This document shows, piece after piece, positions 17,666 through 42,851 of a DNA stretch of 64,000 nucleotides (positions are counted from its first letter, which is position 1; the number at the start of each line of letters is the position of its first letter). This DNA is from Lolium rigidum. Taxonomy: Eukaryota; Streptophyta; Magnoliopsida; Poales; Poaceae. The translations under genes and the position numbers were made by a program. The notes below the pieces were generated by a model. The model was not told where the DNA came from, searched no databases, and was given only the letters and a program-made list of their open reading frames with translations. Location: the NCBI RefSeq assembly GCF_022539505.1, contig NC_061512.1, forward strand, positions 155,913,962 through 155,977,961, given 5' to 3'.

Positions 17666-20700
<3,035 letters not shown>

Positions 20701-22607: not shown

Positions 22608-23590
22608 TGATGACCCACAAGTATAGGGGATCGCAACAGTCTTCGAGGGAAGTAAAACCCAAATTTATTGATTCGACATAAGGGGAGGTAAAGAATACTT
22701 ATAAGCCTTAACAACTGAGTTGTCAATTCAGCTGCACCTGGAAAAGCACTAGTAACAGGGGTGATGTGAAAGCAGCAGTAATATGAGAGCAATAGTAACA
22801 GATAACACAACAGCGAGTAATAGTAACACGGAGGCAATGACACCGNNNNNNNNNNNNNNNNNNNNNNNNNNNNNNNNNNNNNNNNNNNNNNNNNNNNNNN
22901 NNNNNNNNNNNNNNNNNNNNNNNNNNNNNNNNNNNNNNNNNNNNNAAGGCAGCTCATGAGATCATTGTATTGAAGTACATGGGGGAGAGAGTACCAACTA
23001 GCTACAACTAGAACCCGTAGTCCATGGGGGAACTACTCACGGAGCATGATGGAGGCGGTGGCGTTGATGGAGATGGCTTCCGAGGGCACTTCCCCGTCCG
23101 CGCAGGTGCCGGAACAGAGACTTTCGTCCCCGAAACGGAGTTTCGCGATGGCGGCAGCGCCCGGAGTCTTTCTCGGAGTTTCGTCAATTGGTATCGCGTT
23201 TTTAGGTCGAAAGGGGTCTTATAGGCGAAGAGGCGGCGCAGAGGGCGCCCGGGGCCTCCTCACCATAGGCCGGCGCGGCCGGGCCCGGGCCCGCGCCGCC
23301 TTATGGTGTGGTGGCCCTCCGGCCCGCCTCCGACTCTCCTTCGGTGTTCTGGGGTCTTCTAGGAAAAATAAGATACTCGGGTCTTTGTTTCGTCGAATTC
23401 GAGAATATTGCCCGAACGACCTTTCGGGAACCAAAAACAAGCAGAGAACGAGAACCGCACTTCGGCATCTTGTTAATAGGTTATTTACAGAAAACGCATA
23501 AAACATTATAAAGTGCGAGCAAAACATGTAGGTATTGTCATAAAACAAGCATGGAACATCATAAATTATAGGTACGTTGGAGACGTATCA
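22608..23590. repeat. Solo LTR with assembly gap
   Basis: An LTR from TGATGACCCACAAG to GACGTATCA is flanked by a perfect AGAGG duplication (22603-22607 and 23591-23595). No partner LTR or internal region is seen, so it is a solo LTR left by recombination, unless the gap hides internal sequence. Its right half is related to, but diverged from, the LTRs at 5588 and 10610 ('AAGGCAGCTCATGAGAT', 'GGCATCTTGTTAATAGG'). Confidence 0.75.
22846..22945. other. Assembly gap (100 N)
   Basis: Exactly 100 Ns, the conventional placeholder for a gap of unknown size. Comparison with the 1.7 kb related LTRs suggests several hundred bases or more are missing. Confidence 0.99.
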
Positions 23591-30314: not shown

Positions 30315-33300
30315 ATGGCATCCAAGACCGCTGCTGAAACACTCGCCGACAAGCAATGCACCAAGGCCCTCGCCGAGTCCTCCGAGGCCGCGCCTTCTGC
30401 GTGCCAGCCCCAGGAGCGAACTGGCGGAGCAGGCAAATCGGGGCCTGCTTCGCCGATAGCGGTTCCGCCGCCGGGCGATGTGGCCACGTCCAGTGGAGTC
30501 AAAGAAGACGATAAAGGCTGCAGCTCCGTTGACGGGTGTGTCAAACTGGACTGCGACGAGGACGCCGAGAAGAGCTCGATGCGGGGCAGCGTCAAGGACA
30601 GCTCGGTCTCCGCCAAGTTCAGCGACGGGACGAGCAGCCTGACGAAGGCGAGCGGGAGCACCAAGGTCAGCGGCCACGCCGACTTCGTCCCGAGCGGGAA
30701 GAGCAGCGTCTACCGGCCCAGCGCCGGCAGCGACGTGAGCGACGACAGCACCTGCAGCAGCATCTGCAGCAGCGCGAGCAAGCCTCACAAGTCGAACGAC
30801 TCGAGGTGGGAGGCGATCCAGGCCGTCCGGACCAAGGAAGGCTCGCTGGGGCTGAGCCATTTCAGGCTGCTCAAGAGGCTTGGCTGCGGCGACATCGGCA
30901 GCGTCTATTTGTCGGAGCTTAGTGGCACGAAATGCTACTTCGCGATGAAGATTATGGACAAGGCGTCTCTTGCTGGCCGCAAGAAGCTTCTGAGGGCCCA
31001 GACTGAGAGGGAGATTCTGCAGTGCTTGGACCATCCGTTTCTTCCAACTCTGTACACCCACTTCGAGACGGATAAATTCTCGTGCTTGGTGATGGAGTTT
31101 TGCCCTGGAGGAGACCTGCATACTCTAAGGCAGAAGCAGCCTGGGAAGTTTTTTCCTGAACAAGCTGCCAAGTAAGTGTCTTCGTTCTATGTTTTATTTT
31201 GCTGATAGCTATATTTAGCATTCATGATCCACCACCGTTCATGCTTATTTCTTTCATTATATAGCACCCAGGTGTGTACTAATGCAACCGGTTTGGTACT
31301 TGGATATATCGAAAATTTGGTGTCAAATTATACCTTTCATCTGTTCACTTGGACAAGATGATATCACCGTCGTCTCTCATATGCTTTTTGCTCTCTACCT
31401 GTTTGTATACTTATTTGATAGCATTCATATTAAACTTTTAGATTGTAAAATCAAGTTCGTGGGGTGTGTTTGGTTTGAAACCAAGATTGCCCTACCAAAC
31501 ATTTGGCTATCTGATTTTTTTGCCAAGGTTTCTGTGCCCATGAGTTAGCCAGCTTTCGCTAAAAAGTTGAACTAGAGTTGGTAAGGAGCCATTGACATGC
31601 CAAATAATTGGCAACCATCCAAACAAGGACCAAAGTTTTGGTCATAGCAAAAAAAACTTTAGTTAGGTATATTTTGGCCACAAACCAAAATGCTTATCAG
31701 AATACCTTTTTGCCACACAGGCTAGCACTGATGCTTATTTTAAAGGATGAGCGCCTGATTAGGCATGCATGCTTAGGAGGTGCTTGTGCATTTAAATAGC
31801 AATAATTAATACATAATAAATCATCTAAGCACCTACAGAATGCGTCCTTGCATTGGTGGAGTTGCATATAGGTGCTTAATGGTGTGGCAATATTCTTTCT
31901 CATTGAGCACTCACACATAAGCACCTTGCATTGTACATGCCCTTAGCTCATACATGTTGAAAATCTTGTTCAAATGCTGATAAATGCTTTTGGTTTCATG
32001 GATCATATGTGGTCCTCTTGTATTTTATTAAGTTTATCAGTATCATGCATTTTTTGTCTGGGCTCTCTATGATTAACAACTATCTTTGATTTTCTATTCT
32101 TCTGGAGCTTTTCTGTTACTGTTAGCAAGGTTTGTTGGAAATTAGTATTGCTTCTGTTGCTGAATTGAGTGTCATTTTGGAATTTGAAGAACATATTGTT
32201 CAGAACAATTTCACATCTTAAATTCTTGATGATCACAACTGAGTAGTTCGATAGTCACGTATTATCTGTCGTTGGTAGTAGACATGTAAGCACTAGAAGT
32301 GGTAGTGATGCTGTTGTTAAACCAAATTGTCTGGAGCTCCTCTAATGGACATGCGTCTGTAGTATAGATGTCACCGCTTTACCTGTAGGTTCTTAGACTA
32401 ACGGGATTCTACCTGTTAAATATGGCATGATTAGGGTGTAAGCATTTATCCTTGACCAACTGTGGTTGGATTATCTGGGTGGTCAACCAAATCATGCATT
32501 CACACTAGCACTTTGTCTTCTGAACCAGGTATTTTCTCTAGAAAGTTGTAACTTGTAGGCACTAAAATAAATGCTTTGTATGTCCTAGGGGTGGAAACGG
32601 ATCGGATGTGGATCGGATAGTACCCTTCCCATACCCGTTTTCATATTTTCAAAACGAATACATATGGATGTTGTCGAATACGAATGTGGAGTGGATGTTC
32701 CTGGAATATGAATGCGGAGCAGATGTTTTCTCAATGCGGAACAGATATGAGTAATGAAATAATAGACCCTTATCTTATTGTGAGTCAACTATCTAATGAT
32801 ATAATACACAATAGTTTGTTTGATGTTCCATAGAAGAATAAATTTGACCACTTTGTTTGTATTTTTGGTTGAATAATTGGCATATCAGGATAGAATTACC
32901 AAAATAGGCTAACATGATTTTATTCGGATACGGATATATGTTCCATATCTACATTTGGTTCAAAATCCAATACCACATTTGTTTGTGTATTTATAAAACG
33001 AATCCGTTTTTTTTTGAGAAAACGCAAAAGTCTTTTGCATTTCATTTCATTGGAAAGGAGTTCGGTACAAAACTCTGCGGTAAGATGGCTCGCAGGCCTA
33101 GGGCTCCGGCACGTGCCCAGAGGGTGGCCTTGTCTCTGATCCGGGCAACCTGTGTAGTGGTCGATGGTTGGGCATTCTCAAAGACGCAGCTGTCGTGATG
33201 CTTCCAAATCATCCGGATATTTACCGCATCCATTTTAATGTTCGTCCGGATTCAGATATTACCATGACCATTTTCGATTTCCCGAATACGAATATCGGAT

Positions 33301-36300
33301 AAGTCGAATTATCCACTACCAGTTCCCACCCCTATTTGTTTTTTTCTGAGAAAACGCAAAAAGCCTTTGCTTTTCTTTTCATTGAAAATAGAGAGTTTGT
33401 TGTTACATGCCTCCTAAGAGGTTAAGGTTCCGAATACAAATTACAATTTAGTGAACATCCCAGGTCAGCGGCAGGAAGACACGCAGGCCTGGCGCTCCGG
33501 CTCGAGCCCAAAGGGCAGCTTCATCCTTGATATTGGCGACGACATTGTTGACGGAGGGTTGAGCTCCATTGAACACACAGTCATTGCGTTGTTTCCAAAT
33601 CAGCCAAGGGGTCAGAAGCGTGATGGAGGCGAGACTTTTGCGAAGAGTTTTGGGCGTCGCCTGCTTGGCCTGGCACCACCATCTCTGGAGCGTGTCGTCA
33701 TGCTCTGGCGGCCTATTTGTAACTACCTATATCATTGATTTGGGAACCTTAATCTATTAAAAAAATCCCATCATACATCCATGTCCAATATCTAGTTACA
33801 TGGGCCTTAAGATGCACATCTATAGGGATTACTTTTGTGATAGGAAGTGTGATATTGGATAGAGTTATTTATGGCAATGTGCTAGAAGTGAAACATTCAT
33901 CGGTTGGCTATTTTGTTCATGAGTGTGTTGGAGTCGTAGTTTAAAAAACTGGTCCGGTGACCAAACTGGTAAGGCTGTCTGTTCAGGTTTTTACCGGTCG
34001 GACCGCCGGTTCACTGTCTGTTCTTTAAGAAAAAAAATGTTTTTGCTAATAAGTATTAATAGATAAATACATATGCAAAAATATGGTAGCATATCTAGAC
34101 TTAGAATATGCAAGAATTCACATAACAAGTTGCAAATATTCTCAAATGGCAATGACATGGCTAGAATTTAAGCCAAATTCCAACTTTCCAAATCCCAACA
34201 GCGTGGTGTCTCAGACGTGCACTGCTCACCGACATTAGAATATGATTATAGGAAGTACAACAACCATTACCTAATCTCTAGTCTGAATCTGTATCATAAA
34301 AATATTCTCTGCTAGCGTGTCTAATATAATTACACGATTATATGAAGTACAACTAACTGAGAACATGACTAGGTTGGAAAGTTTTTACTCCCAGCATGTT
34401 GAATAAATTACAATAGAAGTTTGACCATCCACATAAAACAACCGCAGCTTAGTTGGTTATCTGCTCCTCCCAGACGTGCACTTGCATGCTCAAGCTGCAG
34501 GGTTCGAGTTCCACCCGAGGCAATTAAAATTTTCCAACACTAGGATGGAGCCAGTTGGACCGGTGTCCGGTTTAGTGCGTAAACCTGGCGGTTGGACCGT
34601 GGTTTACCTGGTTTATTCTGTCTCGCTGGCGCAGATGGTCCAGTGTGCTTAAAGGACCGCTGGAGCCTCCGGTTCTGGGATTTTTCCGGTTGAACCAGTG
34701 GTCTGGTCCGGTTTCCTATGGCTAGAGTGTGTGGATTATGGAGTTTACTTCACCATCTTGGTTATGGAACTTTGGCTCAAGGATTACACGTCACAACTTG
34801 TCGCTCGGGTACCGACAAGCTGACAAGTCATGACAAGTCTTAACAAGGGATAGACAAGTCGATATGTATTGACCTGTAACTACTAAAAAATATACAGTAA
34901 CTATTCTACTTACTGTACTAAATTTTGAGGGCATGGGGAGTGGAGAGGAACCTGATACTGTGACAAATGCGTCCAGCGGGCAGGCCCTTCGCTTCTCCAC
35001 GAGCCAGCAGCCTACAATCAAATAAGAGGAGGCGGCGGCAAGCCGGCGGTGGCCAGGTGAGGGGCGGCGAGAGGGGAGTGTCCAGGTGAGGGGCGGCGGC
35101 TGGGTGGGAGCCTGGGAGGGCACGATCTGTTTAGATAGGGTTTCACAGGACGCGATGGGCTTTTTATTTTCCAGCCCACAACTTGTCGCTCGACCTCTCG
35201 AGAGAGACAAGCCGTGATTAGTTGTTGACTTGTCAACTTGTCGATCAAGAAGTTTAACTTGTCGTGTTGCTCCAGCTTATCGACAGTCAAGTTGCGACCT
35301 GTAGACAAGTCACAACTTGTCGAACGACACTTAATCCTTGCTTTGACTCTGCTTTTTGTTCTGATCTGTCCATTTAATCAAGCTTGCCTTGGAGAGTGAA
35401 CATAACATACCTCATACCTGGCATACCTTTGTCTGAGCAAGGGCATATCAATTTAGTCAGACAAAAACAATACCTTCAGCACATCTGGAGCATTTTTGGT
35501 CCACTATCTGAATTCTTGTATCATTTTTGTCTGTTTCTTGTACTGCTTGCGGAGTTACTTCTGTACCCACGTAAATTACTTACTTCAGTTTAGTTTACCC
35601 GCTGTTTCCATGTTCTTCACTTGTGGAACTGACTTAGATATTGGATACAAATTTACACAAGTGAAGAACATATCCTCATTAAGTAGGTACTAGCACACAC
35701 TGTTAAGCGTAAAAACTCATGATTTCTTTAAAATATGTGCAGGTTTTATGTAGCAGAGGTGCTTCTTGCTCTAGAGTACCTACACATGCTCGGTATCATA
35801 TATCGGGACCTCAAGCCAGAGAATGTTCTTGTGAGAGAAGATGGCCACATTATGCTGTCGGATTTTGATTTGTCCCTCCGCTGTGATGTGAGCCCTACAC
35901 TTCTTAAATCTTCCAACCCTGGTGTAGATCCTAACCTAAAGAGCAATCCAGCTTATTGTGTACAGCCCGTGTGTATTGAGCCAGCCTGTATTCAGCCCGC
36001 TTGTGTTACAACAACCACATGCTTCTCGCCTCGATTTTTCTCATCCAAGTCCAAGAGGGAGAAGAAGGAAAAGAAAGCAAAGGCAGACATTGCAAGTCAA
36101 GTCAGACCACTCCCTGAGCTTGTTGCAGAGCCCACAGATGCAAGGTCTATGTCATTTGTTGGCACCCATGAGTACTTGGCACCTGAGATCATAAAGGGCG
36201 AGGGGCATGGGAGCGCTGTCGACTGGTGGACCTTTGGCATATTCTTGTATGAACTTCTTTACGGAAAGACCCCGTTCAAAGGTTCAGGGAACAGGGCAAC

Positions 36301-36610
36301 ACTATTCAATGTTGTCGGACAGCCCCTCAGGTTCCCAGAATCGCCTGTTGTGGGTTTTGCGGCAAGGGATCTTATAAGAGGATTGCTCATCAAGGAGCCA
36401 CAGCATCGATTGGCGTACAAGCGTGGAGCCACAGAAATAAAGCAGCACCCCTTCTTTGAAGGTGTTAACTGGGCATTGATAAGGTGTGCTACTCCTCCAG
36501 ATATCCCCAAGCCAGTTGAGATCCCTCGTCCGGTAGCCTCCACAAGTCAAAAGGCAACGCCATCATCCGAGAAAGCTCCAGACAGTTATCTTGAATTTGA
36601 TTTCTTTTAG
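30315..36610 (+). CDS. AGC VIII (D6PK-like) serine/threonine protein kinase
   Basis: Two exons (30315-31171 and 35743-36610) encode 574 residues. Residues 1-175 form a Ser-rich, low-complexity N-terminus. The kinase domain follows: glycine loop '[11 protein letters not shown]' (189-199), ATP-binding Lys in 'FAMKIMDK' (K212), catalytic loop '[11 protein letters not shown]' (D308), and 'DFDLS' (326-330) with DFD in place of DFG, the hallmark of plant AGC VIII kinases. A Cys/Pro-rich insertion ('[16 protein letters not shown]') separates it from the activation segment '[14 protein letters not shown]'. The C-terminus 'DSYLEFDFF' is the hydrophobic PDK1-docking motif. Members include D6PK, which phosphorylates PIN auxin carriers at the plasma membrane, and rice G11A. 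Which substrate this one uses is not shown. Its intron is 4571 bp. Confidence 0.95.
32586..33334. mobile_element. hAT-like element in kinase intron (related to 27706)
   Basis: The left end TAGGGGTGGAAACGG and right end CCCACCCCTA mirror the element at 27706-28739, and the interior has the same ATTCG-rich repeats. A LINE tail is nested near 33005-33225. I could not confirm an 8-bp duplication because a second LINE has landed at its right edge. Confidence 0.6.
33005..33225 (-). mobile_element. 5'-truncated LINE tail
   Basis: The minus strand ends in poly(A) (plus-strand T-run at about 33007) and encodes the last LINE residues: '[19 protein letters not shown]' and '[17 protein letters not shown]'. 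Only the C-terminus of the RT-containing ORF remains, as usual for L1-type insertions. Confidence 0.7.
33340..33711 (-). mobile_element. 5'-truncated LINE tail with target duplication
   Basis: Flanked by a perfect 9-bp duplication CCTATTTGT (33331-33339 and 33712-33720). The minus strand encodes '[18 protein letters not shown]' and '[11 protein letters not shown]', the same LINE C-terminus as at 33005, and ends in poly(A). Confidence 0.8.
33944..34725. repeat. Unclassified repeat with subterminal CCGGTT/AACCGG motifs
   Basis: Both ends are dense in GGTCCGGT, CCGGTT and ACCGG motifs in both orientations, while the middle is AT-rich. That pattern is typical of transposase-binding subterminal repeats in hAT-like elements. 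Left 'AAACTGGTCCGG' and right (inward) 'AAACCGGACCAG' are similar. I found no target duplication. Confidence 0.4.
34441..34520 (+). other. tRNA-like (SINE-type) segment
   Basis: Eighty bases contain an A-box-like GCTTAGTTGGT (34447-34457) and a B-box-like GGTTCGAGTTCC (34501-34512) with tRNA-like spacing, followed by a pairing arm remnant CACCCGAGG. It is not a functional tRNA, since acceptor and anticodon stems do not close. It may be a captured tRNA or SINE head within the surrounding repeat. Confidence 0.4.
34778..35340. mobile_element. hAT-like MITE with ACAAGT subterminal repeats
   Basis: The termini are CAAGGATTACACGTC on the left and, inward from the right, CAAGGATTAAGTGTCG. The flanks are CTTTGGCT (34770-34777) and CTTTGACT (35341-35348), an 8-bp duplication with one mismatch. 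ACAAGT/ACTTGT occurs many times within 150 bp of each end. The middle is GC-rich with no transposase. Confidence 0.65.
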
Positions 36611-37267: not shown

Positions 37268-37441
37268 GTATGATGTTGAAGAATTACTACTGAGGCCTAC
37301 TCTGTTGGAGTTCACGTACAAATCATGTCCTGGGTTCCAAGTATATGTCTTTCATTTTGTTGTGCTTCTGGAGCACATGTCTGCAGGTGCAGATTAATGA
37401 TATCAAGCTTCTTGTATAATCTGAATGTAGCAAACAAGAAG

Positions 37442-37606
37442 GGTGAGGAAGGAGCGCTTAAGAACGATAGGAATGAGAGGCATCGGAAATACCAAACCAT
37501 GGTTCCACCTAAGTTCTCAACACAAGAGGTGAAGAACAACTAGTTAGGCTTTCCTCTATGTACTCATTCCCACTGCTCTTAGGCCCTCTCTTTCTTCCTC
37601 TTCCTA
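37442..37606 (-). ncRNA. MIR2118: miR2118-type precursor hairpin 1a
   Basis: The candidate mature 22-mer is on the 3' arm at 37489-37468 (minus strand; core CGATGCCTCTCATTCCTA). The star-like 22-mer is on the 5' arm at 37570-37549 (GGAATGAGTACATAGAGG). Flanking arms extend pairing (CTAAGAGC with GTTCTTAAG). Sequence and arm order match the known grass miR2118 family; the mature form equals that of hairpin 2a. miR2118 directs cleavage of reproductive PHAS transcripts in anthers. Expression is not shown here. Confidence 0.8.
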
Positions 37607-37684
37607 GCTCGTTTCTTGTAGATCTCGCATCGAATGTGCACACATACATTTGGTTTCCAACCTAAAGTAATGAGCAAGATAAAA

Positions 37685-37841
37685 AGGAAGAGGAAGGAGT
37701 GCTTAAGAACAATAGGAATGAGAGGCATTGGGAAACAACAAACTATGTTCTCACCTCAATTCATAGGTGAAAACTAAGCAAGTTAGGCTTCCTCCATGTT
37801 CCCACTCCAACTGCTCTTATGCCCTCTTTTCTTCCTCTTCC
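37685..37841 (-). ncRNA. MIR2118: miR2118-type precursor hairpin 1b
   Basis: The candidate mature 22-mer lies at 37734-37713 (core CAATGCCTCTCATTCCTA) and the star-like strand at 37808-37787 (GGAGTGGGAACATGGAGG). Long flanking complementarity (GGAAGAGGAAG with CTTCCTCTTCC) gives a stem well beyond the 22-mer. It lies 245 bp from hairpin 1a in the same orientation, consistent with one transcript. Confidence 0.8.
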
Positions 37842-37925
37842 GGACTCGCCTTTAAAATCTCACGATAATCTAAATATGTGCACACATGTCTATGGTTTCT
37901 CCATCAAAGCTTGCACATAAGCCAA

Positions 37926-38087
37926 AAGGAAGAGGAAGGGGTGCACAAGAACTGTAGGAATGGGAGGCATCAGAAAAGCACCAAAACTAATATTTGCACC
38001 TCCAACACTAAAGGTGGAAACAAACAAGTTGGTCTTTCCTCCATGTTCCCATTCCTAGTGCTCTTGAGCTCTCTCTTCCTCTTCCTG
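37926..38087 (-). ncRNA. MIR2118: miR2118-type precursor hairpin 1c
   Basis: The candidate mature 22-mer lies at 37976-37955 (core TGATGCCTCCCATTCCTA) and the star-like strand at 38055-38034 (GGAATGGGAACATGGAGG). The stem is long and near-perfect near its base. It is the promoter-proximal hairpin of cluster 1, about 90 bp downstream of the TATA box at 38173-38180. Confidence 0.82.
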
Positions 38088-38172
38088 GTTTATTCTTAGT
38101 ACTTACAAATCTGAGGAAAAAACTCTCAAACAGCAATCTTGAATTGATGGAGAAAGTGTTTCAGCTTTGTGG

Positions 38173-38180
38173 TATATATA
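38173..38180 (-). promoter_or_regulatory. TATA box of miR2118 cluster 1
   Basis: TATATATA in a context shared with cluster 2 (plus strand GTGGTATATATAGG). It lies 93 bp upstream of hairpin 1c. Conserved sequence continues upstream of it (CATGTGGCACC near 38239). A start site near 38145 would give one transcript spanning all three hairpins (inference). Confidence 0.6.
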
Positions 38181-38457
38181 GGATGTGCAGGGTACTTTGT
38201 AGAGAACCTTAGGGGAGGAAGAAATGAAGGCACCCATTTCATGTGGCACCATTGTACAATCAATGAAAGTGGAGATACATATCACCGGGTCATGTCCTAT
38301 TGTCATAGAATGTTAATTTAAAGCACGTGCATAGACATCGTCTGCTTGATCACCAATATCTGTAATCTAATAGTGCCAACCTGTGCATTTATGCAATACG
38401 AAAATAGGTAGTTGGAATTATGAACTAAAACTAATATGAACCTAGAGAACTTAAGGT

Positions 38458-39710
38458 CTCTAATTTCTTTTTTAATAAAGGGGATATATTAATATATGAA
38501 GATACTAATTATGCATAGCCTACGCAATAGTGCAATACCATAATTGTAGTACGAATGTACACATCCAAGAAAAAAGAAGAAGCTAAAAAAGAAAAATCCT
38601 GCTATACTATTCCAGTCTTTGTAGCAGCACAAACACCACCAAGACAACGCCTGAAATCCAAGTTCTCCAAAAGCAATGCCTCTAAAAAGAAAACAATGCA
38701 CAAGCGCCGTCATTGCTCAATCATAGATCTTAGGTTTTCACTCTGAAGAAAGTCTCCGCTCTATCTAGGCACAACCAATCAAGTCTAGACTTTGAATTTT
38801 CACCCTGAAAGGTAAGACATTGAACTTTCCCTATGCTACCACCCCCACTTGCGTACCGCTGCTACGAAGCCCGAATCACCAAGCAAGTTCCTCATCGCCG
38901 CAAAGACTTGAACCACCATTCCTAGTCCTCAAATCACGGATTCCATGCCATTCTCCGCCTCTGACTTCACCATGGAACTAAAAGACATGTCTCATGATAG
39001 CAACATATAGAAAAACTTTACGTCGCTCCCTCATGAAACCAAACGGCCGAAAAAAACATGGGTACGCATGAACAAATCCCATCCGATCCAGCAATATCCA
39101 CACATGAGGTGCCCAAAGGAGTTCGCCGACGGAGCCTTCCGGAACTCAATACTTCAACCAGATCAAAGAGGACAAGCATCCATCGCATGTCTTCCTCTTG
39201 GCGCGAGAGGAACCCTATGACCACCGCCTTTATACGAACTAGGCCTGCAGGCAACAGTCAGCAGAGCCACCCCATGTCAACCGCACCGAGCGGAGACCAC
39301 GAGCATAGCCAGGCACAAATCACGTTGGGAGGCCAAGCCCGCCCACTCCCGACCAAGTTTGGCCGCTAATTTCCCACAGGTCACCGACATGGACGATCTT
39401 GGGATGCGCTGCCATGCCAAGATCTCATCGAGACTCCATGGTCGAGCACCACCAAGCAGATGGTCGGAACGCCTCCAGGCCCGACCCCGCGCTTCCCCAA
39501 CAGCCGCAAAGGCCGCCATAGACGAGTAGATTAGGAGGGCTGCCGCCCTAGGTCCAAGCCACCTCGCGCCGCCACTAGAGGAGACAGCCTCACCGCCGCC
39601 ATCCGCGGTACGGGCCTAGCCCAGCTGCCTCCTCCGGCGGAGGAAAGAGGGGAGGGGTGGGGAGGGTGGCGACGATGATTTCTAGGGTTTCCCCCATGCC
39701 TCCCGACCTC
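38458..39710 (-). mobile_element. Retroposon inserted in segmental copy 1
   Basis: On the minus strand it begins GC-rich ('GGGGGAAACCCTAGAAATC') and ends AT-rich ('CCCCTTTATTAAAAAAG'), about 1.25 kb with no convincing protein. The flanks CTCTAAT and CTCTAAA suggest a short target duplication. The segment is absent from copy 2, so the insertion came after the duplication. It resembles LINE-derived non-autonomous retroposons; the family is not named. Confidence 0.6.
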
Positions 39711-39985
39711 TAAATAAGCTAAGAAATATTAAGAAACAAGGGAAGAAGAACATTCCAATGAAAATTTTGGTATAAGATGTACTTCAAACACCAATAATAA
39801 AAAAATGACTAGGAATAGGAACATGGAGGAATGCCCATTTTTTTAGATCATGCTTTCACCTCGACGCCATCTACCGTCACTGAGCACGATATTGTGAAGT
39901 TTAAGCGTCTACTTGCTAAAACATGTTCTTCTAGATGTATTACAGGCTCAATGACTTGCTTCAAGCGTTGAGTGACCATCATCTA
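39711..39985. other. Tail of segmental copy 1 with a star-like sequence on the plus strand
   Basis: 39711-39740 aligns with 42640-42670 ('ATAAGCTAAGAA'). At 39812-39833 the plus strand carries GGAATAGGAACATGGAGG, a miR2118-star-like sequence in the opposite orientation to the six hairpins. No matching mature arm is seen to its right. Confidence 0.45.
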
Positions 39986-39989
39986 CATA

Positions 39990-41402
39990 GTTAGGTACAT
40001 CCTCGTGGATCCTAGATTCTCGAACTTCCTTTCACATGTCTTTTTTTTTGCGAGAAACCACTGATTATATTAAACTCCAGAAATTACAGAAAGACACCCC
40101 ATAAAGAAAGAAATAGCACATAGGTCCTTCTGCAACACAGTGACGACGGCAAGGAACCAGACGTATCGGCGACGCGCCGCCCGCTGCATCTTCCAAACCT
40201 TGGAACGAAGATGATCCCCCACGGACAGGAAGTTGCCGAAACTCGAACTCCGGAGAGCCTCCATCCTTCGCCAAGCCAGCACCACCGCCGGACTCCACCA
40301 CCAGCAGCTTCGGTTTCTTGATCTGGATCCGCCGCTCCGGGATCCAGCCAGGGAACAAGCGCGCACGGCGGCCACCCAGGACCGCGAGCACGGGGAAGAC
40401 GCCTGCTTGATGCCGAAGCTCCGAAGAACGCCCGCACCGGAGAGGAAGAAGATGACCCAAAAACGCCAACCGCCGATGCCTCCGCCTCCACGACGCCGCC
40501 GACAAGCACCCTACTCAAGCCTACACTATATACACGACGAGATCCTGGGTTCCCCCACCCTCCCGCCGCCGGAGCGGCCGGCGGAGGGAAGGGGAACCAG
40601 CAAATCGACGCCGGCGAGGTGGTTTGACTAGGAGATCCCAAGAAATCGCCTCCGGCACTGTAGCGGGGGAGGAGACGGGTCCAAGGTCCCCTCCTTTCAC
40701 ATGTCTTCTAATTCTTTCGCCTCGTCCTCTCTTAGATATCTCAATTTTCCTATTAATGTTCTTAGTGCCGATGGTACTCTATTGCTAGTCGGGCACTCTT
40801 TTTGCTTCGTTTTATTTTTCTCATGTTCGGGGCGTTATCATGAACCTATTTTTTCTAGCCAACCTACTGATTCTGGTTTTCGCGCCATTCATGACACTGA
40901 TTTTTGCCCTATCCAGGATCATCGCACGAAGGCTCTGGTTGGGGATGGCCCTCTCCGCCATGACTCTCAGGGACTTTGGGATTTAGAATGACTCCATGTT
41001 CCTTGCCTTGCCCCCACACTCTCTAGTTCATTTGCTTTCGCCGCTTCATCTACCAACTCTTTCCAACAGTGGTATCATCGATTTGGTCACCTTTTAGTTC
41101 TCATCTATCGACTTTAGTTAGTCGTGGTCTGTCCTGTCTAAGGAGCTACCCTTTTACCATGTTAAGGTTGTAGGATTGGTAAACAATTTCAATTACCTTA
41201 TCCTACTAGTGAGTCAGTGTGTCAGCTTCCTTTTGATTTAGTACAATGTGATTTATGGGGTTCGGTCTCCTTGACTTCGAAAGGGGGTCATATATACTAT
41301 ATTAGTTTTATTAATGATTTCTCTCGATACACTTTACTTTATGTCTTCTCGCAATGAGGTTCCCTTAGTTATAAGCGTGCCATGGTTCACACTCAGTTCT
41401 CT
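39990..41402 (+). pseudogene. Ty1/copia relic (protease to integrase region)
   Basis: Frames interrupted by stops and a nested retroposon contain 'SWILDS' (protease region, near 40010), 'LRYLNFPINVLSADGT' (40730), the pre-integrase region (about 41070) and 'MVHTQFST' (41382-41405). It is truncated at both ends and abuts segmental copy 2 at about 41403. It cannot be active. Confidence 0.6.
40043..40691 (-). mobile_element. Retroposon with 16-bp target duplication
   Basis: Flanked by a perfect 16-bp duplication, TCCTTTCACATGTCTT (40027-40042 and 40692-40707), inside the copia relic. The minus strand starts GC-rich and ends in poly(A) (plus-strand T-run at 40043). There is no recognisable protein. 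It is the same style of element as 38458-39710. Confidence 0.75.
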
Positions 41403-41610
41403 ACAATGTTGAAAAATCACTACGGAGGCCTACTTCGTTGGAGTTCACGGAGGAATCATGTCATGGGTTCCAAGCATGTCTTCCATTTTGTTGTGCTTCT
41501 GGAGCACATATCTGCAACAGAAATGATTAACGATATCAAGCTTCTTGTATCATCTGAATGTCTGCAATATATGTTTGTTTTTTCTGCTAAAGCGATCTAG
41601 CAAACAAGAA

Positions 41611-41766
41611 GGATGAGGATGCATAGATTTAAGAACGGTAGGAATGAGAGGCATCGGAAATAACAAACCATGCTTTCATCACCTAAATTCCTCAATACAA
41701 GAGGTGAAGAACAACTAGTTAAGCTTTCCTCTTTGTGCTCATTCCCGCTGCTCTTAGCCCCTCTCC
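41611..41766 (-). ncRNA. MIR2118: miR2118-type precursor hairpin 2a
   Basis: The candidate mature 22-mer at 41660-41639 is identical to that of hairpin 1a. The star-like strand is at 41745-41724 (GGAATGAGCACAAAGAGG). The lower stem is weaker than in the other hairpins because both outer arms have diverged, so processing is less certain. Confidence 0.7.
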
Positions 41767-41846
41767 TAAATCATTTTTTAGACCTCGCATCGAATATATG
41801 CACACATTACATTTGGTTTCCATGCTAAAGCAACCGAGCAAGCCAA

Positions 41847-42006
41847 AAGGAAGAGTAGCGAGTGATTAAGAACAATAGGAATGGGAGGCACCGGGAAACA
41901 ACATACTAAGTTCTTACCTCAATTCATAGGTGAAAAACTAAGCAAGTTAGGCTTCCTCCATATTCCCACTCCAACTGCTCTTATGCCGTCTTTTCTCCAT
42001 CTTCCC
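41847..42006 (-). ncRNA. MIR2118: miR2118-type precursor hairpin 2b
   Basis: The candidate mature 22-mer lies at 41897-41876 (core CGGTGCCTCCCATTCCTA) and the star-like strand at 41972-41951 (GGAGTGGGAATATGGAGG). It corresponds to hairpin 1b by position and star sequence, but the mature strand has changed at three positions. Confidence 0.75.
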
Positions 42007-42090
42007 GACCCGCCTTTGAGATCTCACATTTATGTAAATATGTGCACACATGTCTATGGTTTCATCGTCAAAGCTTGCACATAAGCACAC

Positions 42091-42252
42091 AAGGAAGAGG
42101 AAGGAGTGCACAAGAACGGTAGGAATGGGAGGCATCAGGAAAGCAGCAACTAATATTTGCACCTCCAAAACTAGAGGCGGAAACAAACAAGTTCGGCGTT
42201 CCTCCATGTTCCCATTCCTAGTGCTCTTGAGCTCTCTCTTTCTTCCTCTTCC
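42091..42252 (-). ncRNA. MIR2118: miR2118-type precursor hairpin 2c
   Basis: The candidate mature 22-mer lies at 42141-42120 (core TGATGCCTCCCATTCCTA) and agrees along its full length with the miR2118 form I recall from rice. The star-like strand lies at 42218-42197 (GGAATGGGAACATGGAGG). The stem is long and well paired. It is promoter-proximal in cluster 2. Confidence 0.85.
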
Positions 42253-42336
42253 TGGCTTATTCTTAGTACCTACAAATCCGAGGGAAAAAATCTTAAACAA
42301 GCTTGAATTGCTGGAGAAAGTGTTTCAACTTTGTGG

Positions 42337-42344
42337 TATATATA
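42337..42344 (-). promoter_or_regulatory. TATA box of miR2118 cluster 2
   Basis: TATATATA in the same context and at nearly the same distance (85 bp) from hairpin 2c as in cluster 1. Its conservation across the duplication supports a functional promoter. Confidence 0.6.
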
Positions 42345-42851
42345 GGAGTGCAAGGCACTTTGTAGAGAACCTTAGGGAGCGGAAGCAATGAAGACGCCCA
42401 TTGCATGTGGCACCGTTTTACAATCAATGACAGCGAAGACACGTACCACGGGACTTGTCCTATCGTCCTAGACAATTAGTTTGAAGCACATGCGTGGACA
42501 TCTTCCACATGATCACCTATATCTGAAATCTGGTGTATAGCAATAGTTCTCCAACTTGTGCATTTATGCAGTACGAAAATAGGTAGCCGTTGGAATTGTG
42601 AGCTAAAACTAATATGAACCTAGACAATTTAAGGACCCTATAAGCTAAGAATTGTTAAGAATCAATGGAAAGAGCATCGAGGTGAAAGTCGATACAAAAT
42701 GTATTTCAGACATCAACAACCTAAAAATGTACTTCAGACATGAGCTACACCAGAACGCATGAATAATAAAGAGAAAGAAAAGGGAGAACTAATAGAATAT
42801 GATTAGCCTATGATTATAGAGATCTATTATTTTTAAAACTATATCTTATAT

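What the first reader, a model, noticed from the sequence alone, without database searches (positions are those of the whole stretch)
37442..42252. Two clusters of three miR2118-type hairpins on the minus strand
Six sites carry a 22-mer of the form TTYC[C/T]..TGCCTCYCATTCCTA on the 3' arm of a long stem, with a star-like GGA[A/G]TG..ACATGGAGG strand on the 5' arm. Mature positions: 37468-37489, 37713-37734, 37955-37976, 41639-41660, 41876-41897, 42120-42141. This arm order and sequence match the grass miR2118 family, which triggers 21-nt phased siRNAs from long non-coding PHAS transcripts in pre-meiotic anthers. Five distinct mature forms are present, so the locus could widen target range. It lies beside a kinase gene in otherwise transposon-rich DNA and would be missed by protein-based annotation.
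Basis: partly seen in the sequence, partly recalled or inferred. Interest (0 to 1): 0.92.

Follow-up and report, generated by a model that had tools for sequence, protein, structure and literature searches.

The report
Ryegrass miR2118 gene clusters
Two duplicated triplets of miR2118 microRNA genes sit beside a kinase gene in annual ryegrass; it is a known kind of anther small-RNA trigger in a new species and place, and two of its five microRNA sequences were found nowhere else in that genome assembly.

Summary
All six 22-mers are at the stated places on the minus strand, on the 3' arm of a stem. Five of six hairpins pass Rfam's MIR2118 cut-off (88.5-137.8 bits); the sixth (41603-41780, 54 bits) pairs poorly and looks decayed. 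The genome is Lolium rigidum.
The clusters are 82%-identical copies of one unit: TATA promoter, three hairpins about 240 nt apart, 3' block. 75 hairpins pass the cut-off in the clusters fetched, window included. Stems co-vary; a bulge 16 nt below the miRNA in 38 of 83 folds fits base-to-loop dicing. 1172 miR2118-like 22-mers (up to 3 mismatches) face 33 in the reversed-pattern control; 81 are my hairpins. This fits a large pool of 21-PHAS target sites, but some are probably a T-rich repeat.
Expression, dicing and phasing are untested: no small-RNA data. A new member of a known kind. Freshest point: two mature forms occur, as exact 22-mers, only at this locus.

The parts
42085..42256 (-). MIR2118 hairpin A1; mature 42120-42141 TTCCTGATGCCTCCCATTCCTA, star 42197-42218
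   Evidence: Rfam 137.8 bits; MFE -80.3, z -6.9; 3 unpaired in mature nt 1-20; mature identical to osa-miR2118f as printed in PMC7847607
41841..42009 (-). MIR2118 hairpin A2; mature 41876-41897 TTCCCGGTGCCTCCCATTCCTA (only exact copy found in the assembly), star 41951-41972
   Evidence: Rfam 88.5 bits, just over gathering 85; z -4.9; only exact 22-mer
41603..41780 (-). decayed MIR2118 hairpin A3; mature-like 41639-41660 TTTCCGATGCCTCTCATTCCTA, star 41723-41745
   Evidence: Rfam 54.0 bits, below gathering 85; z -3.0; 6 unpaired in mature nt 1-20
37920..38089 (-). MIR2118 hairpin B1; mature 37955-37976 TTTCTGATGCCTCCCATTCCTA, star 38034-38055
   Evidence: Rfam 121.3 bits; z -6.8; same mature printed as a tae-miR2118f form in PMC3398953
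37678..37845 (-). MIR2118 hairpin B2; mature 37713-37734 TTCCCAATGCCTCTCATTCCTA, star 37787-37808
   Evidence: Rfam 116.8 bits; z -7.8
37433..37608 (-). MIR2118 hairpin B3; mature 37468-37489 TTTCCGATGCCTCTCATTCCTA (exact copies in the assembly: B3 and A3 only), star 37548-37570
   Evidence: Rfam 118.2 bits; z -5.2; 5 unpaired in mature nt 1-20; zero-mismatch rows
42300..42480 (-). putative promoter of unit A, TATATATA at 42337-42344
   Evidence: similar sequence upstream of unit B and of 7 of the 33 other MIR2118 units in the fetched loci; transcription not tested
38134..38315 (-). putative promoter of unit B, TATATATA at 38173-38180
   Evidence: as for unit A
41406..42640 (-). duplicated unit A (promoter, three hairpins, 3' block)
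   Evidence: 82% identical to 37273-38462 over 1260 columns; identity by segment
37273..38462 (-). duplicated unit B
41406..41516 (-). block downstream of the third hairpin kept between the units (counterpart about 37273-37385); possibly part of the primary transcript
   Evidence: 89.2% identical between units, 34.7% beyond it; no match to it in the other fetched loci (C7 matches cover only about 41545-41602)
39714..39831 (.). unit remnant in the spacer: 39714-39807 resembles sequence upstream of unit A (72%); 39812-39831 is a star-like fragment on the + strand

Best explanation
The locus is two tandem copies of a MIR2118 gene unit in Lolium rigidum, each probably a separate polymerase II transcript on the minus strand with its own TATA promoter. 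Each transcript would fold into three hairpins about 240 nt apart. DCL1 would cut about 16 nt above a 5'-arm bulge, then again 21-22 nt further up, releasing a 22-nt miRNA with 5' U from the 3' arm. Loaded in an AGO1-clade protein, the miRNAs would cut complementary non-coding 21-PHAS transcripts in pre-meiotic anthers and trigger RDR6/DCL4 phasiRNAs. Shown here: hairpins, covariance-model match, stem covariation, bulge position in part of the folds, duplicated promoter sequence, and a genome-wide excess of miR2118-like sites beyond the hairpins. Inferred: transcription, dicing, AGO loading, target cutting, phasing, anther timing. Five hairpins look intact; A3 looks dead or weak.
For: Rfam 5 of 6 over cut-off. 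Fold z-scores -3.0 to -7.8. Over 48 non-redundant hairpins of this genome, 21 of 46 stem pairs have two-sided changes (shuffles 13.9, 0 of 500 as high; slid controls 11-18) and 87.3% of cells pair (slid controls 47.9-55.9%). The 5'-arm bulge lies exactly 16 nt below the miRNA end in 38 of 83 own folds (22 of 48 non-redundant). Mean information: mature 1.63 bits, star 1.48, loop 0.69, flanks 0.45-0.58. In the partition function of each whole cluster the matures pair with upstream sequence (mean 0.66-0.83), not downstream (0.00). 75 hairpins over cut-off in window and fetched clusters. 1172 sites at up to 3 mismatches against 33 in control, 81 of them in my hairpin list; 0 of 16 isolated-site loci, 12 of them in the 3-mismatch set, give any Rfam match at E 0.01 or better. 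Related promoter sequence at 7 of 33 other units. In rice, deleting 14 miR2118 loci causes sterility and 648 phasiRNA clusters fall (PMC7305157, passages).
Against: No small-RNA or transcript evidence. A3 fails the cut-off; A2 is marginal. Between units A and B the hairpin arms are not uniformly better kept than flanks (77-96% against 75-89% for promoter, leader, linkers and 3' stretches), so selection on every hairpin is not proven. 19 of 83 folds show no 5' bulge by my rule and 26 of 83 have the largest one elsewhere than 16 nt; in the window B1, A2 and A3 show none. 26 of 33 other units lack similarity to this promoter. The non-hairpin sites were not shown to be transcribed or phased; at least five of the 16 isolated ones are T-rich look-alikes, three identical, which suggests a dispersed repeat, and the reversed-pattern control does not exclude repeats. 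The bulge rule and the DCL1, RDR6, DCL4 and AGO steps are recalled general knowledge.
Confidence: 0.88

Rival explanations
1. Real but inactive MIR2118 relics: the duplicated units are decaying pseudogenes and active copies lie elsewhere (C7, C3, C5 80 Mb).
For: A3 is degraded and A2 marginal; some arms of hairpins 2 and 3 have diverged to 77-81% between units; 70 other hairpins pass the cut-off.
Against: A1, B1, B2 and B3 keep 117-138 bits, 3 to 5 unpaired in mature nt 1-20, and each unit keeps a TATA element. The three mature segments are 95.5%, 86.4% and 100% identical between units.
Confidence: 0.1
2. Shifted pairing: the 3' arm of one hairpin pairs with the 5' arm of the next, so stems are shared, as reported for Bdi-MIR2118ab in Brachypodium.
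For: Cut out alone, mature-plus-next-star segments of the window (192-200 nt) are about as stable as the canonical hairpins (180 nt): -70.9 v -68.2, -77.8 v -80.6, -48.8 v -53.7, -72.7 v -71.6 kcal/mol. Brachypodium precedent (PMC4053937, passages).
Against: In the full cluster the downstream pairing probability is 0.00 for all six matures. Over 43 neighbouring pairs the canonical form is more stable in 34.
Confidence: 0.05
3. An inverted-repeat or transposon-derived siRNA source making 24-nt siRNAs, not a miRNA gene.
For: Transposon-type reading frames around; the plus strand also folds.
Against: The family fits one covariance model with a fixed mature position; stems co-vary; conservation peaks at mature and star and drops in the loop.
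Confidence: 0.02

Closest known systems
Rice MIR2118 clusters on chromosomes 4 and 11 (18 members, 12 mature classes; PMC7305157, passages)
   Same: Tandem hairpins, several mature forms; A1 mature equals osa-miR2118f as printed in PMC7847607 (passages)
   Different: Another species; two three-hairpin units as a segmental duplication; two mature forms found only here in this genome. Synteny with rice was not tested
Wheat MIR2118 on chromosomes 1, 2, 4 and 5 (140 exact mature matches in hexaploid wheat; PMC7057497, passages) and the tae-miR2118 sequences of 1AL (PMC3398953, passages)
   Same: Clustered and expanded in a related cool-season grass; A1 and B1 matures both printed as tae-miR2118f forms
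   Different: No chromosome-level correspondence was tested here; counting methods differ
Bdi-MIR2118ab of Brachypodium with stem sharing (PMC4053937, passages)
   Same: Neighbouring MIR2118 hairpins whose arms could pair in another register
   Different: Here each hairpin has its own star and the canonical register dominates in the full-cluster fold
miR482/miR2118 of eudicots (PMC8368212, passages)
   Same: Same superfamily and phasiRNA-trigger role
   Different: Largely NLR gene targets there; grass-type noncoding targets are the likely ones here (inference)

Membership tests
MIR2118 (Rfam RF01911) | covariance-model score at or above gathering (85 bits) | tested here: met
   5 of 6 hairpins (88.5-137.8 bits); A3 at 54.0 bits does not meet it
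MIR2118 (Rfam RF01911) | 22-nt mature with 5' U on the 3' arm | tested here: met
   6 of 6 by sequence and predicted fold; true ends need reads
MIR2118 (Rfam RF01911) | tandem clusters | tested here: met
   two triplets, spacings 237-245 nt; window included, 41 of 43 neighbour pairs 200-310 nt apart are 227-248 nt; 5 wider gaps (423-466 nt) were left out
Plant miRNA gene (criteria recalled) | at most 5 mismatched positions in the miRNA duplex | tested here: met
   unpaired among mature nt 1-20: A1 3, A2 3, B1 3, B2 3, B3 5; A3 6 fails
Plant miRNA gene (criteria recalled) | precise mature and star reads | not testable with these tools
   no small-RNA data
21-PHAS trigger | complementary sites in the genome outside MIR genes | tested here: met
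   1172 sites v 33 control, 81 in listed hairpins; 0 of 16 isolated-site loci give any Rfam match at E 0.01. An unknown share is probably repeats
21-PHAS trigger | 21-nt phased siRNAs starting at the cut site, pre-meiotic anther | not testable with these tools
   no reads or degradome
Stem-sharing MIR2118 (Bdi-MIR2118ab type) | one arm used by two matures | tested here: not met
   six stars for six matures; downstream pairing 0.00 in the full-cluster fold

The most novel reading that the evidence does not exclude
This locus is a private trigger: the A2 (TTCCCGGTGCCTCCCATTCCTA) and B3/A3 (TTTCCGATGCCTCTCATTCCTA) miRNAs, found as exact 22-mers nowhere else in the assembly, start phasiRNAs from their own subset of 21-PHAS transcripts, so that variant arms of a redundant family are specialised by target pool. 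For the B2 form, hairpin variants and non-hairpin sites differ at different positions, so trigger and target pools could be matched variant by variant.
Probability: 0.25. Interest if true: 0.5.

Novelty: new member of a known kind. Interest (0 to 1): 0.35.

Why it matters
miR2118 is required for fertility in rice (PMC7305157, passages), and annual ryegrass is a major, resistance-prone weed (PMC9664059, passages). Two library searches listed five papers holding both 'Lolium' and 'miR2118', none of them about ryegrass by title. The hairpin inventory and the candidate target sites make the pathway testable in this species, and the locus-specific mature forms let its output be told apart from other copies in ordinary small-RNA data.

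Tried and rejected
Stem sharing between neighbouring hairpins was tested and does not dominate in the full-cluster fold. Plus-strand origin: Rfam scores the plus strand 22-66 bits against 54-138 on the minus strand, so minus was kept. A second small-RNA duplex from the conserved hairpin base (3' side 18-32 nt below the miRNA 1.48 bits, 5' side 1.29) was considered; a conserved clamp below the bulge explains it as well, so it stays a lead. Constraint between units A and B is uneven by segment, so I do not claim selection on all six hairpins. Whether the promoter module also occurs at non-MIR2118 loci could not be tested: the DNA search did not complete. The rice chromosome of the kinase orthologue was left open. 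Paper searches for a MIR2118 promoter element returned capped listings (25 of 110 and 15 of 819); from the listing I opened five papers (PMC7305157, PMC7057497, PMC8368212, PMC4053937, PMC7847607), passages only and on other points, so they settle nothing about what is in print. The search on base-to-loop dicing and those were seen as listings; only PMC4053937 was opened.
Full report
CHECK. The minus strand was read directly. I name the clusters A (41.6-42.3 kb) and B (37.4-38.1 kb), hairpins 1 to 3 in the direction of transcription. Rfam scores: A1 137.8, A2 88.5, A3 54.0, B1 121.3, B2 116.8, B3 118.2 bits; gathering is 85. Weaker plus-strand matches (22-66 bits) are the mirror of the same inverted repeats. 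Folding is well below shuffled energy for five hairpins and less so for A3 (z -3.0, 1 of 100 shuffles as low). So five look like working precursors and A3 like a decayed one.

WHERE IT IS. The window lies in a 2,438,458,167-base assembly of 1,764 contigs, on contig C5. The Lolium rigidum paper gives 2.44 Gb, 1,764 scaffolds and N50 361.79 Mb (PMC9664059, passages); contig C6 is 361,799,021 bases and C5 271,427,052. The kinase protein joined from two exons (about 30315-31175 and 35744-36610, plus strand; edges approximate) is 100% identical over its 574 residues to an NCBI L. rigidum D6PK-like kinase on a contig of 271,427,052 bases. The kinase ends about 0.8 kb from hairpin B3, tail to tail with cluster B.

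ANATOMY. A and B are copies of one unit: 37273-38462 against 41406-42640, 82% identical over 1260 columns. Each has a TATATATA about 205 nt upstream of the first mature, three hairpins, and a 3' block (89% identical) after which similarity stops (35%). Sequence similar to this promoter lies upstream of 7 of the 33 other MIR2118 units in the fetched loci (three at C5 80 Mb, four on C7); the other 26 gave no match. An alignment of six promoters, A and B included, shows shared blocks. The tree of 48 non-redundant hairpins groups A1 with B1 (0.83) and A2 with B2 (0.81), and A3 and B3 with the third hairpin of a C7 unit (0.76), so the triplet is probably older than the A/B duplication. The spacer has taken insertions: a GC-rich stretch about 40042-40691 with an A-run, flanked by a 15-base direct repeat AGACATGTGAAAGGA.

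FAMILY IN THE GENOME. The first RF01911 search listed 36 places, all over cut-off, as a lower bound. An exact 15-mer pattern gave 56 places against 1 in control. In the loci I fetched plus the window, 83 sites have at least 14 of 22 mature bases paired upstream and at most 5 mismatches. By Rfam, 52 + 18 hairpins in fetched clusters and 5 in the window pass: 75. Two of the fetched sets (C7 128 and 130 Mb; C5 80.03 and 80.52 Mb) look like near-copies and may be uncollapsed haplotypes, so 75 may overstate a haploid count; it may also miss copies elsewhere, such as the unfetched sites at C3 355.98 Mb and contig C209. Of 48 neighbouring pairs in the 35 units, 43 are 200-310 nt apart and 41 of these are spaced 227-248 nt; 5 wider gaps (423-466 nt) were left out. 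There are 38 distinct matures in the 83.

PROCESSING. On 48 non-redundant hairpins, information content is highest in mature (1.63 bits), star (1.48) and the 3' stem 18-32 nt below the duplex (1.48; its 5' side 1.29), lower in the stem directly below the duplex (1.10-1.22), and low in loop (0.69) and flanks (0.45-0.58). Stem pairs co-vary: 21 of 46 pairs with two-sided changes, mean 13.9 in shuffles with 0 of 500 as high, 11-18 in slid controls; sliding drops paired cells from 87.3% to 47.9-55.9% (the structure came from one of the sequences, which favours it). In each hairpin's own fold the largest 5' bulge lies exactly 16 nt below the miRNA in 38 of 83 (4 more at 15), elsewhere in 22, and none was called in 19. 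In the window B3, B2 and A1 have it at 16; B1, A2 and A3 gave none. From recalled general knowledge, 15-17 nt above a bulge is where DCL1 makes its first base-to-loop cut; I opened no paper on it. In the whole cluster the matures pair with upstream sequence (mean 0.66-0.83), never downstream (0.00), although isolated shifted hairpins are almost as stable, which matters because stem sharing is reported for Bdi-MIR2118ab (PMC4053937, passages).

TARGETS. The degenerate 22-mer TTYCYRATGCCTCYCATTCCTA with up to 3 mismatches gives 606 + 566 = 1172 places; the reversed control gives 33 (only the first places are listed). 81 of the 83 hairpin matures fall in that set, leaving at most 1,091, less any hairpins I did not fetch. 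Sixteen isolated loci from the 15-mer search had no Rfam match of any family at E 0.01 or better; 12 of the 16 belong to the 3-mismatch set. Against my reading: at least five of the 16 are T-rich look-alikes, three of them the identical TTTTTTCTGCCTCCCATTCCTA, so part of the excess is probably a dispersed repeat, which the reversed-pattern control cannot exclude. For the B2 form, 51 places lie within 2 mismatches, control 0; the 28 not in my hairpin list differ from it most often at position 12 (10 of 28), while the 23 hairpin matures differ mostly at positions 6 and 14 (12 each). So those sites are not simply copies of the same genes. For the A2 form, 62 places lie within 2 mismatches, control 0, and the only exact one is A2. 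The B3/A3 form is exact only at B3 and A3 among the zero-mismatch places. That these sites are transcribed and phased is inference.

KNOWN OR NEW. Rice has 18 members in two clusters with 12 mature classes; deleting 14 loci gives male and female sterility (PMC7305157, passages). Wheat and its relatives have 25 to 140 exact mature matches by genome (PMC7057497, passages). A1's mature is printed as osa-miR2118f (PMC7847607, passages); the A1 and B1 matures are printed as tae-miR2118f forms (PMC3398953, passages). The A2, B2 and B3/A3 forms had no main-text hit as RNA 22-mers in the library (DNA letters were searched for the A1 form only; supplements not searched). The five papers that hold both Lolium and miR2118 are, by their titles, two on alfalfa and one each on foxtail millet MYB genes, rice restorer-like proteins and walnut (search listing). 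This is a new member of a known kind. A specialist would find it useful rather than surprising.

Noticed in passing
window 18396-19093 (+): Three tandem snoR74 H/ACA snoRNA copies over Rfam cut-off (85-101 bits), about 280 nt apart.
   Followed up: no
G000 C7 128.31-128.80 Mb and 130.26-130.36 Mb; C5 80.03 and 80.52 Mb: MIR2118 clusters occur as near-copies, partly in opposite orientation; possibly uncollapsed haplotypes rather than true duplicates.
   Followed up: partly
window 39714-39831: Spacer between the clusters keeps a piece resembling sequence upstream of unit A and, next to it in the opposite orientation, a 30-nt star-like fragment: perhaps the remnant of a further unit.
   Followed up: partly
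window about 40042-40691: GC-rich insertion with an A-run and a 15-base direct repeat on both sides, probably a retroposed element.
   Followed up: no
window 38470-39690: Insertion in the upstream region of cluster B with 66-71% relatives at C3:355.937 Mb, C5:80.043 Mb and C4:71.098 Mb, each within about 2 kb of a miR2118-type site; since only such loci were searched it may just be a common repeat.
   Followed up: no
48 non-redundant MIR2118 hairpins of the fetched loci and window: The stem 18-32 nt below the duplex (GGAAGAGGAAG / CTTCCTCTTCC) is about as conserved as the star on its 3' side and more than the stem directly below the duplex; a clamp or a second small RNA could explain it.
   Followed up: partly
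L038, L043, L048 (and similar in L041, L042): Identical or similar T-rich 22-mers ending in the miR2118 core at separate places, perhaps a dispersed repeat carrying a miR2118-like site.
   Followed up: no
window 5588-7300/10610-12319 and 48546-49725/54450-55625: Two pairs of 97-98% identical direct repeats, probably the long terminal repeats of retrotransposons.
   Followed up: no
window 22846-22945: A run of 100 unknown bases, likely a scaffold gap.
   Followed up: no
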